From the IMG/VR virus record IMGVR_UViG_3300045994_000321, positions 1 through 39,073 of that record: 39,073 nucleotides of DNA; one strand, 5' to 3'. Below the pieces are notes generated by a model. That model did no database searches. It was not told the origin of the DNA and saw only the letters and a list, made by a program, of their open reading frames with translations. Positions 15,897-23,577 of the stretch are shown here, in pieces. The DNA comes from a virus. Positions within the stretch are counted from its first letter, which is position 1. Every line of letters begins with the position of its first letter. The position numbers and the translations under genes are program-made.

Positions 15897-16958
15897 TTAA
15901 AACGAGTCACGTCCGACCTCTTTATTGCGGTCATAAACGCGTGCCGTAGTCTCGGGATTGGCATGCAGATCGGGCAGGGCGCCACGGTCTTTCTTGTGCT
16001 TGGTGGCATAGAAGGCACGCAGGTCATGGAAGGTGAACCGGGTTTCCTTGGTCAGTACGCCTTGCTTGATGGCCTCGATGACGCACCGCTGCCATAGGGT
16101 TTTGAAGCCCTGATCGGTGTACTGGTTGTTGTCGCGCGTGGGGAACACATAGAGACACTCCCGATCCGGGCGCAGTGCTTCAAGCCTCAAGAGCAATGCA
16201 TCCAGTTCGTGGCCAATGGTGACCACCTCGACAATCTGTTCACGCTTTTTGCCGCGTTGTTTGGCTCGGATGGTTCTGATGACACCATTGGGGCGGTCGA
16301 TCTGGGGCCAAGTGAGCGGCAGGAACTCGCATTTACGGTTTCCAGCCAAGCTGGCGTACTCCGCAGCCATGCCAACTATCCGGCGTTGTGGCGTCTGCCT
16401 GGAGAGCCATTCCAAGAATTTAGCGAGTACATCACCATGCGGTGACGTTGTGCGGGACTCTACCTGGTGCGGTTCAACGCCGATTGTGGCGTTGATGGTA
16501 CACACGCCTAATTTAATTCCGTGCCCAAACAGGTTGGAAAGTAGCGCCTTTTCGGTATTTGCTCGCTTGGGACTGTCGGCGCGCTCGTCGTGGACATACC
16601 TAGCCACCATGGTCGAATCGATGTGGCTGGCCTGCATCTTGCCAAAGGTCTTGTCGATTTGCTTCCAGGCCTGCTGGTAGTCACTTCGTGAGCTGTTGGT
16701 GAGCTTTTTCCACCTGGGCGCAGGCTTTTCCTCGTCGGTGAACTTTTCCCAGACCCACTTTAGGGTGCCGTGGCCATCGGCGCTGCCAAGCAAGTCAAGC
16801 ACTTTGCGCATTGCTGCCACCTTGTCGGTGCCCAGCGCGACTGGTTTACCACCTACCGGCAGATAGCGATAGCTGACCTTCTTACCGTCTGACCACACCC
16901 GCGCCTGCATCCGTGGCAAGAGGCCCTGGCCAGCTTGGCTTGTGCGTGGTCTACCCAT
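15897..16958 (-). CDS. int: Tyrosine recombinase integrase
   Basis: 353 residues from the ATG at 16958, one base after the stop of the DUF4224 gene; a longer reading to 17033 would overlap that gene by 74 bases. The catalytic pattern is visible: Arg208 in AGNRKCEFLPLTW, Lys233 in the following beta hairpin, His311 and Arg314 in FTFHDLRAFYATKH, His332 in LHANPETTAR, and Tyr342 in ARVYDR. Residues 85-175 look like the SAM-like core-binding domain and the first 50 like an arm-binding region. It is the last gene of the leftward early operon and its 3' end borders attP, so it should integrate the phage at tRNA-His. Confidence 0.9.
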   Translation of the reverse strand: MGRPRTSQAGQGLLPRMQARVWSDGKKVSYRYLPVGGKPVALGTDKVAAMRKVLDLLGSADGHGTLKWVWEKFTDEEKPAPRWKKLTNSSRSDYQQAWKQIDKTFGKMQASHIDSTMVARYVHDERADSPKRANTEKALLSNLFGHGIKLGVCTINATIGVEPHQVESRTTSPHGDVLAKFLEWLSRQTPQRRIVGMAAEYASLAGNRKCEFLPLTWPQIDRPNGVIRTIRAKQRGKKREQIVEVVTIGHELDALLLRLEALRPDRECLYVFPTRDNNQYTDQGFKTLWQRCVIEAIKQGVLTKETRFTFHDLRAFYATKHKKDRGALPDLHANPETTARVYDRNKEVGRDSF

Positions 16959-16959
16959 A

Positions 16960-17175
16960 TCAATGAACTCCCCAAACTGGGCCGGCGGCCTTGTTGGACT
17001 TGGCGGCTTGATTGCCACCCATGGTCGCATCATAGTGCTGGCGATTCACCAGGGGGCGGCCATTGGGCTTGCGGCGCACGATCAGGCCCATGCGCTCAAG
17101 GTATTTGATCTTGGCGTGGTTTTGCACCAGACCATCACAGATGCTGTCGATTTCAGCGTCAGTCAGATCGGACAT
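16960..17175 (-). CDS. DUF4224 protein, integrase partner / possible excisionase
   Basis: 71 residues with the DUF4224 pattern: LTDAEIDSICDGLVQNHAKI, then YLERMGLIVRRKPNGRPLV and a C-terminal basic end. The pattern resembles the small helix-turn-helix proteins coded immediately before integrases. It overlaps the upstream gene by 13 bases and ends one base before the integrase ATG, so the two are translated together. Known members lie next to tyrosine integrases; an excisionase or directionality role is inferred from place and size. Confidence 0.75.
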   Translation of the reverse strand: MSDLTDAEIDSICDGLVQNHAKIKYLERMGLIVRRKPNGRPLVNRQHYDATMGGNQAAKSNKAAGPVWGVH

Positions 17176-18730: not shown

Positions 18731-19002
18731 GCTGGAAGCCCCTCTGCAAATCTTTCATGGTCAGCCCAGTCCGCGTCCAAGGCCTTTTGCATTTCGGCAA
18801 TTTCCTCACGGGTGATGGTGATCATGACGAAGCTCTCACCAGGATGGCCACCGCTTTCGTCGCAGCGCACATCCAGTGGGCGCACGAGAAGAACCACGGC
18901 ATTGGTCATGCCGCCGTCGTGACTGTCCCACAGGGAAATGGACACCTGTGCAATTGCCTTGTCGACCAAACTGTCATCGTCGAGTGTTGGAGCGGTTCTC
19001 AC
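18727..19002 (-). CDS. 91-residue early phage protein with GTG start
   Basis: 91 residues from a GTG at 19002 that overlaps the ParB-like stop (GTGA). It has a beta-strand run (DKAIAQVSISLWDSH, then GMTNAVVLLVRPLDVRCDES) and a helical ITREEIAEMQKALDADWADH end. The placement makes it a downstream partner of the ParB-like protein in the same message. Function unknown. Confidence 0.55.
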   Translation of the reverse strand: MRTAPTLDDDSLVDKAIAQVSISLWDSHDGGMTNAVVLLVRPLDVRCDESGGHPGESFVMITITREEIAEMQKALDADWADHERFAEGLPA

Positions 19003-20729
19003 GCTTCCACCTCATCATCCTCTTCCTGCATCGCGGCAGCGATGCCTGACATTGCATCCTCTGCAGACAGCTTTGCCACAGACTTTTTGGCTTTGCCTGC
19101 AACACTCTTCGCTGGCCGCGCAGCGGGGGTTTTGACCACATCCAGCATTTGGCCCTGGACTTGGGCTTTGATGCGCCCCAAATCGATGCCGCAGCTCTCG
19201 GCCAGCGACTCAAGTGCATAGGCCTTATTCGCTTGCCAGCCTTTGTCTGCCCATGTTCTCAGGTTCTTGGATTGGGACAATGCCACCAATGTGCAGATGC
19301 GTGCACCTAGCTCCAGCTCGGGAATGCGCTCTACCATGTCATGGACGAACATATCTACGTCGCGATTGTCGTCATCCGTCAAATTCAACACTTGGACACA
19401 AATCTCGTAGTCGGTATCCTCGTGGAGTGCCAGGGCCGCTAAGATAAAACGCAGCACCGGCACCTCGAACTGATTGACGGCGCCTGCCTGGATGCGCGGC
19501 ACTACGGCTGCAGCTGCCGGAACACGCCAAGCCTTCTCGTATTCCAGCGATAGGCGCAGGCGCTTCTGGTCTTCGGACTCTGCGGGTGCCCGATATTCAG
19601 CTTGCTCCTTGCGCTCAGCCTTGGCCTCGCGTTTTTGTTGTGATTCTGCAGCGACTTCACGCGTCACGATGTGCTTGGTCTCGCCGGTGTGCGGATCAAC
19701 AAACAGCTTGATCTTGCCCTTGAATTCATCCTTGGTGGTCACGGAGCGCAGCGACACCTGCTTGCTTTCCTCGTCGTCCCACTCGGATGGCGCGTCCAGA
19801 TCCACGTGGCCACTGATGGGGCTGTGACGGCTGAACTTCAGTTCCAACGCCTCTTTACCCTCAATCACTTCCATGCCCTTCTTGCGCGCAGCCTCAACGA
19901 TCACAGCAGTGTGGGCAGCTTCCTTGCCGTGAAAGCATGCAGGGTCAATGCAGATGTCTGGACTGTCGGCATCGCTGAAAAGATCGGGGTTCGCACCCGT
20001 GCGCTTGGGGCAATCACCACAGGCACCGGCGCTCTTTACCAGGCTGGCGTCCGTGATCTTGAAGCGGGCGTCTGCCAGGCGCAGCATGACGTTTTGCTTT
20101 ATCCAGTCCTGAGCATCGCGAAAGCTCATACGTGCATCACCGCGGTGGTCTATTGCGGCGAATTCACCCAGTGCCTTGATCTGCAGCTTTTCATCAGGAA
20201 TGCGGGCGATCAGCAGGGCCTTGCTGGCATCAATGTCGCCCGCCCTGAACGCCTCGCGCGCTTGCTGGCACAGGTCCATCAGCTTCAGACGTGAATAAAC
20301 ATAGCTGCGGCTCTTGCCGATCTTGACGGCTACCTGGTCGGCATTGATGTCAGCGTGCTGCATCAGTGCGTCGTAACCTTCGGCCTCTTCGAGCTCCGTC
20401 AGATCGTCGCGCTGCAGGTTCTCCACAAGCTGGATTTCAAGCACCTGGTCATCGGTCAGTGGCCGGATCAGGGCGGGGATGGTGTCCAGTCCGGCCATGA
20501 TGCTGGCACGCCAGCGACGTTCACCGGCTACCAATTCATAGATCACATCGCGGTCAGTGTCTGGCGCGCGGCTGCCTGGCAGGAAACGCAACAGGATAGG
20601 CGTATGCACACCGCTGGGCTTGATGCTGTTGGCCAAGTCCTGCAAGCGCTCCTGGTTGAAGTACTTGCGTGGGTTGGTCAGGCTAGGGGTAATAAGGGAA
20701 AGCCCGATCTGGGCAAATTGTTCAGACAT
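18999..20729 (-). CDS. Orphan ParB/RepB/Spo0J-family protein
   Basis: 576 residues from the ATG at 20729, which follows AAAGGAG at seven bases; an in-frame start at 20783 was rejected. ParB signatures are clear: NPRKYF (19-24), GERRWRA (69-75, the CTP-binding box), ENLQR (103-107), then a helix-turn-helix (about 128-150, [20 protein letters not shown]). Near residues 235-265 a C-x2-C...C...C pattern ([17 protein letters not shown]) suggests a metal-bound module. The C-terminal half is helical and charged. No ParA lies anywhere in the window and no parS palindrome was noticed, so plasmid-style partition is unlikely. A role in early gene control or in DNA processing is inferred. Confidence 0.8.
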
Positions 20730-20958
20730 GGAGAGGCTCCTTTGGTCGGTGGATATAAGCGTTAAACCAGCGCCGCAACACATAACTGCGCACGATGCTG
20801 GCGACTGTGAAAATGAAAGTGATCTGCAGGTTTTGCGACAAGGTGACGTTGTGTCCGTATGCCGGCAGCACCACAGCAGTGAGCGCCACGCTGATCACAA
20901 AGCCAATGGCTGTGCCAAGCGTTGCTTCAAGGAAGCTGGAGAGGCGCGACTGGCTCAT
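20722..20958 (-). CDS. DUF7220 small membrane protein
   Basis: 78 residues from the ATG at 20958; longer readings start inside the upstream gene. The pattern S-Q-S-R-L-x(4)-E-A, a membrane helix (ATLGTAIGFVISVALTAVVL), a Gly/His loop, a second helix (QITFIFTVASIVRSYVLRRW) and an Arg-rich end is the DUF7220 family I recall from many proteobacterial phages. Its stop lies eight bases inside the ParB-like gene and its start overlaps the preceding stop. Function is not known to me; it may act at the host membrane during early infection. Confidence 0.7.
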   Translation of the reverse strand: MSQSRLSSFLEATLGTAIGFVISVALTAVVLPAYGHNVTLSQNLQITFIFTVASIVRSYVLRRWFNAYIHRPKEPLHV

Positions 20959-22263: not shown

Positions 22264-22304
22264 ATTTACCCATTGGGTAATATATGTCAATACCCAATGG
22301 GCAT
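22264..22304 (-). promoter_or_regulatory. Left early promoter with two operators
   Basis: Operators at 22267-22279 (TACCCATTGGGTA) and 22291-22303 (TACCCAATGGGCA) have centres 24 bp apart. On the minus strand TTGACA (22290-22285) sits directly after one operator and five bases before the other, so the second fills the spacer, with an AATAAT-like -10 at 18 bp. This would let the repressor block transcription of the 15-gene leftward operon. Confidence 0.75.
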
Positions 22305-22829
22305 CTATTCACTCGTGAAGAGAGTTCTTTGAAATAGATCGGTGTAATCCGTGTTTTCTTTGTGTGCACAGAGCTTGTTCCATGTCGCTGCGGCTTCAGA
22401 GATTTCGGTCTTTCCGCGCGCGACGACTGCAATGCCACGAAGTCGTGCATTGAAGGAATTTGTAGCAGAGTATTCAATACAACTGGTGCCTTCTTTGGTT
22501 GCCATCGCCGAGTGAAGTTTGAATGAATCCGGGTCTTTAGCCGCCTTTTTGACGGTGAGCACAAGTGCAGCGGTGTTCAGTCGATCGGACTCTTCTAATT
22601 TTTGGGCCTCAGTGGGAGGTGGTGGGCTTGCTGCTGCAGAGGGTGTGGATGTTGGACCAGACCCCAGTGTGATTGCCCTCACAAAGCCAATACCCAAAAT
22701 GCCAACAATTGCCCAAGTGACAATGCCGGTTTTCTTTCTGGGCGAGGGAACGGGCGCTCCGCATTTGGTGCATGAAGTAGCTTTGTCGCTAACTTCGGTG
22801 CCGCATTCCTTGCACTTGATGAGTGCCAT
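22305..22829 (-). CDS. Zinc-ribbon, membrane-anchored lysogeny-module protein
   Basis: 174 residues with AAGGGAG before the ATG. Cys6/Cys9 and Cys20/Cys23 form a zinc ribbon (KCKECG...CTKCGAP). One membrane helix follows at about 35-55, then a Pro/Ser/Ala linker (GPTSTPSAAASPPPPTEAQK) and a C-terminal domain of about 95 residues (VKKAAKDPDSFKLHSA, TSCIEYSATNSFNA) that resembles small extracytoplasmic domains. It follows the repressor gene by 30 bases in the same direction and lies between the two operator regions, the place of rexAB in lambda. It is therefore likely made in lysogens and is a candidate for superinfection exclusion or envelope alteration. That role is inference. Confidence 0.7.
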   Translation of the reverse strand: MALIKCKECGTEVSDKATSCTKCGAPVPSPRKKTGIVTWAIVGILGIGFVRAITLGSGPTSTPSAAASPPPPTEAQKLEESDRLNTAALVLTVKKAAKDPDSFKLHSAMATKEGTSCIEYSATNSFNARLRGIAVVARGKTEISEAAATWNKLCAHKENTDYTDLFQRTLFTSE

Positions 22830-22859: not shown

Positions 22860-23252
22860 CTAGCCTTTGGTGCCAGTGGCTTCACGGGTGTGTTGCGTAA
22901 GAGCATCCAGTAGGCGCACCGCAGTCTGCCACTGATCAGGAGGCATGGCCTGCATCAACTGCATAACTTTGGTGCGCGGGTCCTCTTCTCCATGCAATTC
23001 TGCATAGCTGGGTGGGGTATCCATCCAGCCAAGGCCCAACGACAGCTTCTCTTCTATTTCTCGCGCCTGTGAGTCGCCCATCGCATATTCCTTGCCTGGG
23101 CGGTCGGTTCGCTTGTTCTTGTTTCGAATGCGTGCGAGCTGCGTATGGTTACGTTCGTAGCCAAGCGCTTCATTTAAATTCGCCAAGATCCCATCGTGCT
23201 TCCTAATGAGCATTTCCAGGCGCATGCGGCGAGTTTCATCAATAGTTTGCAC
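22860..23252 (-). CDS. Lysogeny repressor (CI-position, no peptidase domain)
   Basis: 130 residues from a GTG at 23252; the upstream ATG (23303) would put coding sequence through two operators, and a start at 23225 lacks a ribosome binding site. ETRRMRLEMLIRKHDGIL, then LNEALGYERNHTQLARIRNK and ARE-IEEKLSLGLGWMD have the layout of phage helix-turn-helix repressors that end in GWMD. Only about 50 residues follow, so there is no S24 LexA-like self-cleavage domain. It is read away from the right operator region and upstream of the zinc-ribbon gene, as cI is upstream of rex. It should bind the CCCAATGGG-type operators on both sides. Confidence 0.7.
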   Translation of the reverse strand: MQTIDETRRMRLEMLIRKHDGILANLNEALGYERNHTQLARIRNKNKRTDRPGKEYAMGDSQAREIEEKLSLGLGWMDTPPSYAELHGEEDPRTKVMQLMQAMPPDQWQTAVRLLDALTQHTREATGTKG

Positions 23253-23273: not shown

Positions 23274-23333
23274 TCCCCAATGGGGATATTTTCCAATGGG
23301 CATTGACAAACAATACCCAAAGGGTAATAGAAT
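23274..23333 (+). promoter_or_regulatory. Right early promoter with three operators
   Basis: Three related sites lie at 23274-23286 (TCCCCAATGGGGA), 23290-23302 (TTTCCAATGGGCA) and 23314-23326 (TACCCAAAGGGTA). TTGACA (23303-23308) directly follows the second and precedes the third by five bases; a TAGAAT-like -10 is at 23328-23333. Spacing of the last two centres is 24 bp, the same as at the left promoter. The first gene starts within about 10 bases, so its message may be leaderless. The repressor gene starts divergently from this region. Confidence 0.75.
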
Positions 23334-23340
23334 GTGAGCT

Positions 23341-23577
23341 ATGCAACTCAATGCCTGGCTCGAATCTAAGTACGGTCGCGGAAAGCTATTGGCTGAATCC
23401 ATTGGCGTGCCTCAATCATTTGTGTCAAAGATGGCTAATGGTGAAAAGGCAATTCCGGCGGAGCATTGCAAGGCAATATTTCGTTTTACTGAAGGCCAGG
23501 TCACTCTGCAGGAGATGCGCCCAAACGACTGGCACAAATACTGGCCCGAGCTCGCCGAAGAAGGGCAGGGTGCTTGA
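23341..23577 (+). CDS. Cro-like (YdaS-type) regulator
   Basis: 78 residues: MQLNAWLESKYGRGKLLAES, then IGVPQSFVSKMANGEKAIPA (helix-turn-helix at about 14-36), EHCKAIFRFTEGQVTLQEMR and a PNDWHKYWPELAE end. The pattern is that of Cro/YdaS-like phage proteins coded divergently from repressors. It is the first rightward early gene, starting at or just after the predicted +1, and is followed without a gap by a microprotein gene (TGAATG). It should compete with the repressor for the shared operators. Confidence 0.8.
   Translation: MQLNAWLESKYGRGKLLAESIGVPQSFVSKMANGEKAIPAEHCKAIFRFTEGQVTLQEMRPNDWHKYWPELAEEGQGA

What the first reader, a model, noticed from the sequence alone, without database searches (positions are those of the whole stretch)
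22305..22829. Zinc-ribbon membrane protein in the rexAB position
The only other gene between the two operator regions, co-directional with the repressor and 30 bases behind it, encodes a zinc ribbon, one membrane helix and an external domain. Genes expressed from the prophage at this spot often protect the lysogen from other phages. This architecture (cytoplasmic ribbon sensing inside, folded domain outside) is unlike Rex and could be an undescribed exclusion or envelope-modification factor.
Basis: inference. Interest (0 to 1): 0.6.

Follow-up and report, generated by a model that had tools for sequence, protein, structure and literature searches.

The report
Prophage membrane protein excluding rival phages
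A temperate phage carries, directly behind its repressor gene, a gene for a membrane-anchored protein from an unnamed family that many unrelated phages keep in that spot and whose distant relative in phage 186 is recorded as blocking infection, so it probably shields the host cell from other phages.

Summary
A 174-aa protein (zinc ribbon, one membrane helix, exported domain) lies 30 bases behind the repressor. It and the repressor are the only genes between two operator clusters (2 + 3 sites), and a PL-like promoter lies in the left cluster. Purifying selection is clear against a 63%-identical homologue in a related prophage.

The exported domain (residues ~75-174) is in no Pfam family but belongs to an unnamed family. 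Of 25 distinct relatives found by sequence alone, 18 sit directly, or about one gene, behind a phage repressor. Those repressors are of several kinds (S24/CI, short HTH, others). Three more converge on a repressor, and one lies farther down a repressor operon. The anchor varies, so the ribbon is dispensable; the domain with two invariant cysteines is the constant part.

The superfamily reaches Orf97 of coliphage 186, whose record says 'expression from plasmid blocks 186 infection'. Other relatives are single-gene insertions beside tape-measure genes, where HK97 carries its exclusion gene gp15.

Best reading: a lysogen-expressed, inner-membrane-anchored superinfection-exclusion factor, probably blocking DNA entry. 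Unlike Rex; not a gp15 homologue. The function of this protein itself is untested.

The parts
22305..22829 (-). Zinc-ribbon / single-helix / exported-domain protein, 174 aa; subject of the finding
22749..22829 (-). CxxC...CxxC zinc ribbon (residues 1-27), predicted cytoplasmic; absent in 9 of 25 F-branch family members
22665..22727 (-). Transmembrane helix (residues ~35-55), N-in/C-out by charge
22308..22607 (-). Exported C-terminal domain (residues 75-174), KDPxSF...CxEY..TNSFNA...WNxxC, invariant C117 and C154; cystatin/NTF2-like predicted fold; no Pfam family
22860..23252 (-). Repressor, 130 aa, short type (PHROG 12107 'transcriptional repressor', E=6e-10), co-directional and 30 bp upstream of the finding; probable GTG start
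22267..22303 (.). Left operator cluster, two TACCCATTGGGTA-type palindromes (22267-22279, 22291-22303), right behind the gene's stop codon
22261..22290 (-). PL-like promoter TTGACA-18-AATAAT in the left operator cluster, reading into the leftward operon
23274..23326 (.). Right operator cluster, three palindromes (23274-23286, 23290-23302, 23314-23326)
23341..23577 (+). Cro-like protein of the YdaS family, divergent from the repressor
   Evidence: PF15943, E=8e-13
15897..17033 (-). Integrase downstream in the leftward direction, supporting a temperate phage
   Evidence: PF00589, E=1.5e-9

Best explanation
The gene is a lysogeny-module superinfection-exclusion gene. In the lysogen it is transcribed with the repressor from the repressor's own promoter (inferred from orientation, spacing and the operators). 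The protein inserts with its zinc ribbon inside and its folded, probably disulphide-bearing domain on the outer face of the inner membrane (predicted). There the domain most likely binds part of an incoming phage's injection machinery (tape-measure or other ejected protein) or the host inner-membrane partner it needs, and stops that phage's DNA entering (inferred by analogy with HK97 gp15, Ltp and SieA, and from the 186 Orf97 record). The ribbon and helix are an exchangeable anchor; the C-terminal domain is the active part. Shown here: the anatomy, the family, the recurrent position behind repressors, and the distant homology to Orf97. Inferred: expression in the lysogen, anti-phage activity of this member, and the entry block as the step.
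For: 1) Position: 18 of 25 distinct F-branch relatives, found by protein similarity only, lie co-directionally 0-1 gene behind a phage repressor. If a random gene had a 4-10% chance of this, P is about 1e-20 to 1e-13, an estimate that ignores shared ancestry. The repressors are of different types: S24/CI in L009, L017, L018, L020, L040, L055; short HTH in L033, L049; no Pfam family in window, L023, L048. Best pairwise identity among the 18 members is about 62% or less. 2) The gene is enclosed by operator-like words on both sides in the window, L002, L009, L017, L023 and L055, with different words in each. 3) Homology to 186 Orf97 ('expression from plasmid blocks 186 infection'): F-branch profile to L062 E=1e-10 and to LPM4 (L015) E=6e-6; L062 to Orf97 39% identity, E=9e-12; profile-profile 98% with intermediates, 86% without. 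4) Other relatives sit beside the tape-measure gene: Klebsiella HK97-like phages (L064, L065; profile-profile 96.6%) and, on the opposite strand, Gordonia phages. HK97 gp15 occupies the same position and is a known injection-blocking exclusion protein (PMC10883804). 5) Anchors vary but all are predicted to place the domain outside, including a probable lipoprotein (LAAGC) form in L021; two cysteines are invariant. 6) Rare in genomes: 1-4 hits per ~370-400 genomes, as expected of mobile cargo.
Against: No expression or plaque data exist for this protein. The Orf97 phenotype is a one-line record note, for overexpression against 186 itself; Orf97 lies in an SOS-induced operon, not in the repressor operon, and is directly only marginally similar (hmmsearch E=0.08). 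Some relatives are not in an immunity region (L051, L058) or are unresolved (L027, L045). L021, L022, L056 and G210 are convergent to the repressor and need their own promoter. The fold match is weak (Z 6.5) and shows no function. Shared operator words were not found in L020, L024, L025, L043.
Confidence: 0.62

Rival explanations
1. Lysogenic-conversion protein with a host-fitness or envelope role (stress, adhesion, chaperone-like) rather than an anti-phage role.
For: Expression position and exported domain fit any conversion gene. Zinc-ribbon/helix proteins with other exported domains exist outside clear prophages (L003, L004).
Against: Members infect or reside in many unrelated hosts yet mostly keep to immunity regions or tape-measure-adjacent spots; a relative is recorded as blocking infection.
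Confidence: 0.2
2. A regulator of the lysogeny switch: a membrane zinc/redox sensor that modulates the repressor or triggers induction.
For: Probable co-transcription with the repressor; a relative (Orf97) shares an operon with the anti-repressor Tum; zinc ribbon and invariant cysteines could sense.
Against: Repressors beside it are of unrelated families, so no common partner; the ribbon is missing in 9 of 25 F-branch members; the conserved domain is predicted outside the cytoplasm.
Confidence: 0.1
3. A Rex-like abortive-infection effector that depolarises or damages the membrane when a second phage infects.
For: Same genetic position as rexAB; membrane protein.
Against: One gene, one helix, no RexA/RexB family match; most mass is an exported folded domain.
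Confidence: 0.08

Closest known systems
Coliphage 186 Orf97 (NC_001317:29604-30335)
   Same: Membrane-anchored protein whose C-terminal ~75 residues share the KxxMxDxxSY/F ... F/YRGTN(A/S)(Y/F)(G/N) core; recorded as blocking 186 infection.
   Different: No zinc ribbon, extra middle region, SOS operon instead of repressor operon, lacks the two cysteines in the core; similarity to this protein only through intermediates.
HK97 gp15 superinfection-exclusion protein
   Same: Small inner-membrane moron protein; family relatives occupy the same gene position before the tape-measure gene. Works at DNA injection (PMC10883804).
   Different: 62 aa without any exported domain; no sequence alignment with this protein. 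Analogue at most.
Phage lambda RexA/RexB
   Same: Gene position: behind the repressor, between the two operator regions.
   Different: Rex is a DNA-binding protein plus a polytopic membrane protein; here one gene, one helix, exported domain.
Ltp (S. thermophilus phage TP-J34) and Sie2009
   Same: Prophage-expressed membrane-anchored proteins that block DNA injection (PMC10883804).
   Different: Gram-positive hosts; homology not tested; no zinc ribbon known to me.
PHROG 38187, 14275, 16400, 2320, 3403
   Same: Existing sequence clusters that match parts of this protein or its relatives.
   Different: All labelled 'unknown function'; none covers the family as one unit or notes its position.

Membership tests
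F-branch of the unnamed exported domain (this report) | K(D/N)Px(S/T)F ... CxxY(R)(A/G)xNSF(N/G)A ... WNxxC with invariant Pro, two Cys, Tyr, Asn-Ser-Phe, Trp | tested here: met
   hmmsearch E=2e-29 (L001 copy of the window; the window is itself in the profile)
F-branch of the unnamed exported domain (this report) | N-terminal membrane anchor placing the domain outside | tested here: met
   hydropathy and K/R asymmetry 4:0; model helix 36-54; prediction only
186 Orf97-containing superfamily | Homologous C-terminal core | tested here: met
   profile-profile 98% with intermediates, 86% against Orf97-type only; chain of significant hits; both models share several viral fold matches
Zn_Ribbon_1 (PF13240) | Score above curated cut-off | tested here: met
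   31.6 bits against 25
RexAB exclusion system | Two genes, DNA-binding RexA and polytopic RexB | tested here: not met
   single gene with one helix between the operators; no Rex family hit
RexAB exclusion system | Gene position between repressor and left operator, co-directional with repressor | tested here: met
HK97 gp15 family | Sequence homology to gp15 | tested here: not met
   no local alignment at E<=100
Superinfection-exclusion proteins (functional class) | Expressed from the prophage | not testable with these tools
   needs RNA-seq; position only supports it
Superinfection-exclusion proteins (functional class) | Reduces infection by other phages when expressed alone | not testable with these tools
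   only a distant relative has such a record
Cystatin/NTF2-like fold | Helix packed on a curved antiparallel sheet, clear structural match | tested here: inconclusive
   best Z 6.5 to 4ebg (DUF4467), 81 residues, 3.2 A; Y-branch model Z up to 6.2 to NTF2/cystatin folds; below Z 8

The most novel reading that the evidence does not exclude
A widespread, unnamed superfamily of membrane-tethered extracytoplasmic domains (three sequence branches, exchangeable anchors: zinc ribbon+helix, plain helix, lipoprotein) that temperate phages of Gram-negative and some Gram-positive hosts keep in two preferred slots, behind the repressor and beside the tape-measure gene, as a general DNA-entry exclusion module. 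Phage 186 Orf97 would be its only member with a recorded phenotype.
Probability: 0.5. Interest if true: 0.72.

Novelty: new variant of a known kind. Interest (0 to 1): 0.6.

Why it matters
Membrane proteins that let a prophage shut out other phages are known, but as scattered single cases without a common domain. If this reading holds, a family with a recognisable signature and a predictable gene position exists across many temperate phages. It would give a search key for exclusion genes now labelled 'hypothetical', link them to an overlooked note on phage 186, and allow a direct test of which tail protein each exported domain recognises.

Tried and rejected
Pfam, NCBIfam and PADLOC give nothing for the C-terminal domain. 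Profile search of PDB sequences: nothing. Foldseek against PDB: no match with E<=0.001; top rows are unrelated proteins with low TM-scores. A known defence system was looked for and not found. I considered that the domain might be a chromosomal housekeeping family; sampled genomes did not show this, but more divergent branches were not exhaustively searched. HK97 gp15 was tested as a possible homologue and rejected. Weak hits judged chance or unreliable: L030 (E=0.009, transposase context) and the CcmE match in NCBIfam (E=0.12). Literature: no held paper contains both 'zinc ribbon' and 'superinfection exclusion'; the original 186 Orf97 paper is not held, and the only held paper found that names orf97 of 186 groups it with tum as an anti-repressor system. 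Shared operator words on both sides were not found for several loci (L020, L024, L025, L043, L049).

Full report
OBSERVATION. The ORF at 22305-22829 (-) is real. It starts MALIKCKECGTEVSDKATSCTKCGAP, a zinc ribbon above Pfam's cut-off. One hydrophobic helix follows (~35-54) with four positive residues before it and none after, so the ribbon should be inside and the rest outside. AlphaFold, given 22 family sequences, predicts the C-terminal domain with pLDDT 92-97: a long helix, three strands, then two helices. The gene begins 30 bases behind the repressor stop with a good ribosome-binding site. Five operator-like palindromes form two clusters, two just behind this gene and three in front of the repressor, with a PL-like promoter in the left cluster. 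This is the lambda OL/OR layout, with the repressor and this gene alone between them. The phage is temperate: an integrase lies downstream in the leftward direction, and it has a lambda-type portal and gpA terminase.

CODING AND CLOSE RELATIVE. A Sterolibacterium MAG contig (L002) holds a 63%-identical full-length homologue. Its order is the same: YdaS-type Cro, divergent repressor (65% identical to the window's from the GTG at 23252), this gene, then operator-like repeats of different sequence. Substitutions are concentrated at third codon positions (45/30/108) and dS is saturated with dN 0.26. The C-terminal domain is 73% identical, the helix/linker only 28%.

THE FAMILY. Profile searches of IMG/VR contigs, genomes and plasmids gave 25 distinct members of what I call the F branch. 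All share K(D/N)Px(S/T)F...CxxY(R)xxNSF(N/G)A...WNxxC, with small departures. Two cysteines are invariant. No Pfam family covers this domain, not even in 186 Orf97. Anchors differ: sixteen have the ribbon; nine do not, and these include plain-helix forms (L009, L022, L024, L049, L051, L055), a three-helix form (L020), a degenerate ribbon (L056) and a probable lipoprotein (L021, LAAGC). The ribbon is therefore not essential, and the exported domain is the common part.

POSITION. I read the neighbours of each member. Eighteen of 25 lie co-directionally behind a phage repressor with no or about one gene between: window, L002, L009, L017, L018, L019, L020, L023, L024, L025, L026, L033, L034, L040, L043, L048, L049, L055. 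L031 lies farther down a repressor operon. L021, L022 and L056 face a repressor tail to tail. L027 and L045 are unresolved; L051 is in a late region. Repressors checked by Pfam are of different kinds. In six loci (window, L002, L009, L017, L023, L055) the gene is bracketed by shared words upstream of the repressor and behind the gene, seldom or never reached in shuffles (up to 4%), with a different word in each. With a 4-10% chance per gene the count is far beyond chance, though shared ancestry makes that figure rough. In genomes the family is rare (1 of 369 and 4 of 399 with the larger profile). The further hits in G210 and G074 are also next to phage repressors: convergent in G210, and 10 bases behind an HTH repressor in G074.

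WIDER SUPERFAMILY AND A RECORDED PHENOTYPE. A second (Y) branch was reached through L062 and LPM4. The F profile finds L062 at E=1e-10 and LPM4 at E=6e-6 among 2759 ORFs, with 186 Orf97 the best sequence below the inclusion threshold (E=0.08). L062 finds Orf97 at E=9e-12, and Orf97 finds LPM4 at E=3e-12. Profile-profile comparison gives 98% with intermediates and 86% for Orf97-type proteins alone. Some intermediates were retrieved by a shared motif, so the 86% and the LPM4 value are the unbiased figures. The record of phage 186 annotates Orf97 'expression from plasmid blocks 186 infection'. A third (V) branch (96.6%) includes genes inserted directly before the tape-measure gene in Klebsiella HK97-like phages, between tail chaperone and tape-measure gene on the opposite strand in Gordonia phages, and near integrase in PAJU2 and SEN5. 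HK97 itself has its exclusion gene gp15 in that tape-measure spot, but gp15 is a 62-aa protein with no detectable similarity.

FOLD. Best solved matches are weak: DUF4467 of S. aureus, Z 6.5 over 81 residues, for the window protein, and NTF2/cystatin-like proteins at Z up to 6.2 for the Y-branch model. Several viral models are hit by both, which agrees with one fold. No function follows from this.

MECHANISM. Known prophage exclusion proteins that sit in the membrane (SieA, HK97 gp15, and the Gram-positive Ltp and Sie2009) block DNA injection, and escape from several of them maps to tape-measure or ejection proteins (PMC10883804). The present protein has the matching anatomy, position and a relative with an infection block. 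I therefore take an entry block by the exported domain as most likely (0.62 for a lysogen-expressed exclusion factor overall; the entry step alone would be lower). Expression, activity and target are inferred.

NOVELTY. Exclusion by a prophage membrane protein is a known kind. The domain family, its exchangeable anchors and its two preferred gene positions do not appear in the family libraries or papers I could search, hence 'new variant of a known kind'.

Noticed in passing
L008:2294-2488: A 63-aa protein made only of the same zinc ribbon plus a helix, directly behind an S24 repressor in an IMG/VR contig; the chassis without the exported domain.
   Followed up: partly
L013:4001-4654; L004:6001-6678: The same zinc-ribbon/helix start carries a second, unrelated exported domain; in Pseudomonas Detrevirus D14O it is the third gene behind cI.
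   Followed up: partly
L075:2911-3216: About 60 Gordonia phage records carry a V-branch domain gene (annotated lipoprotein in one); in the one whose neighbours were read it lies on the opposite strand between tail chaperone and tape-measure genes.
   Followed up: partly
L018:3367-3666; L019:3138-3551: Other small exported or zinc-ribbon proteins lie between the repressor and the family gene, so these repressor operons may hold several conversion genes.
   Followed up: no
window 23341-23577: The Cro-position protein belongs to Pfam 'Bacterial toxin YdaS'; its place beside OR suggests it is a Cro-type regulator, so the toxin label is misleading here.
   Followed up: no
window 18999-20783: A ParB-like protein is encoded in the leftward early operon of an otherwise lambda-like phage with an integrase.
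   Followed up: no
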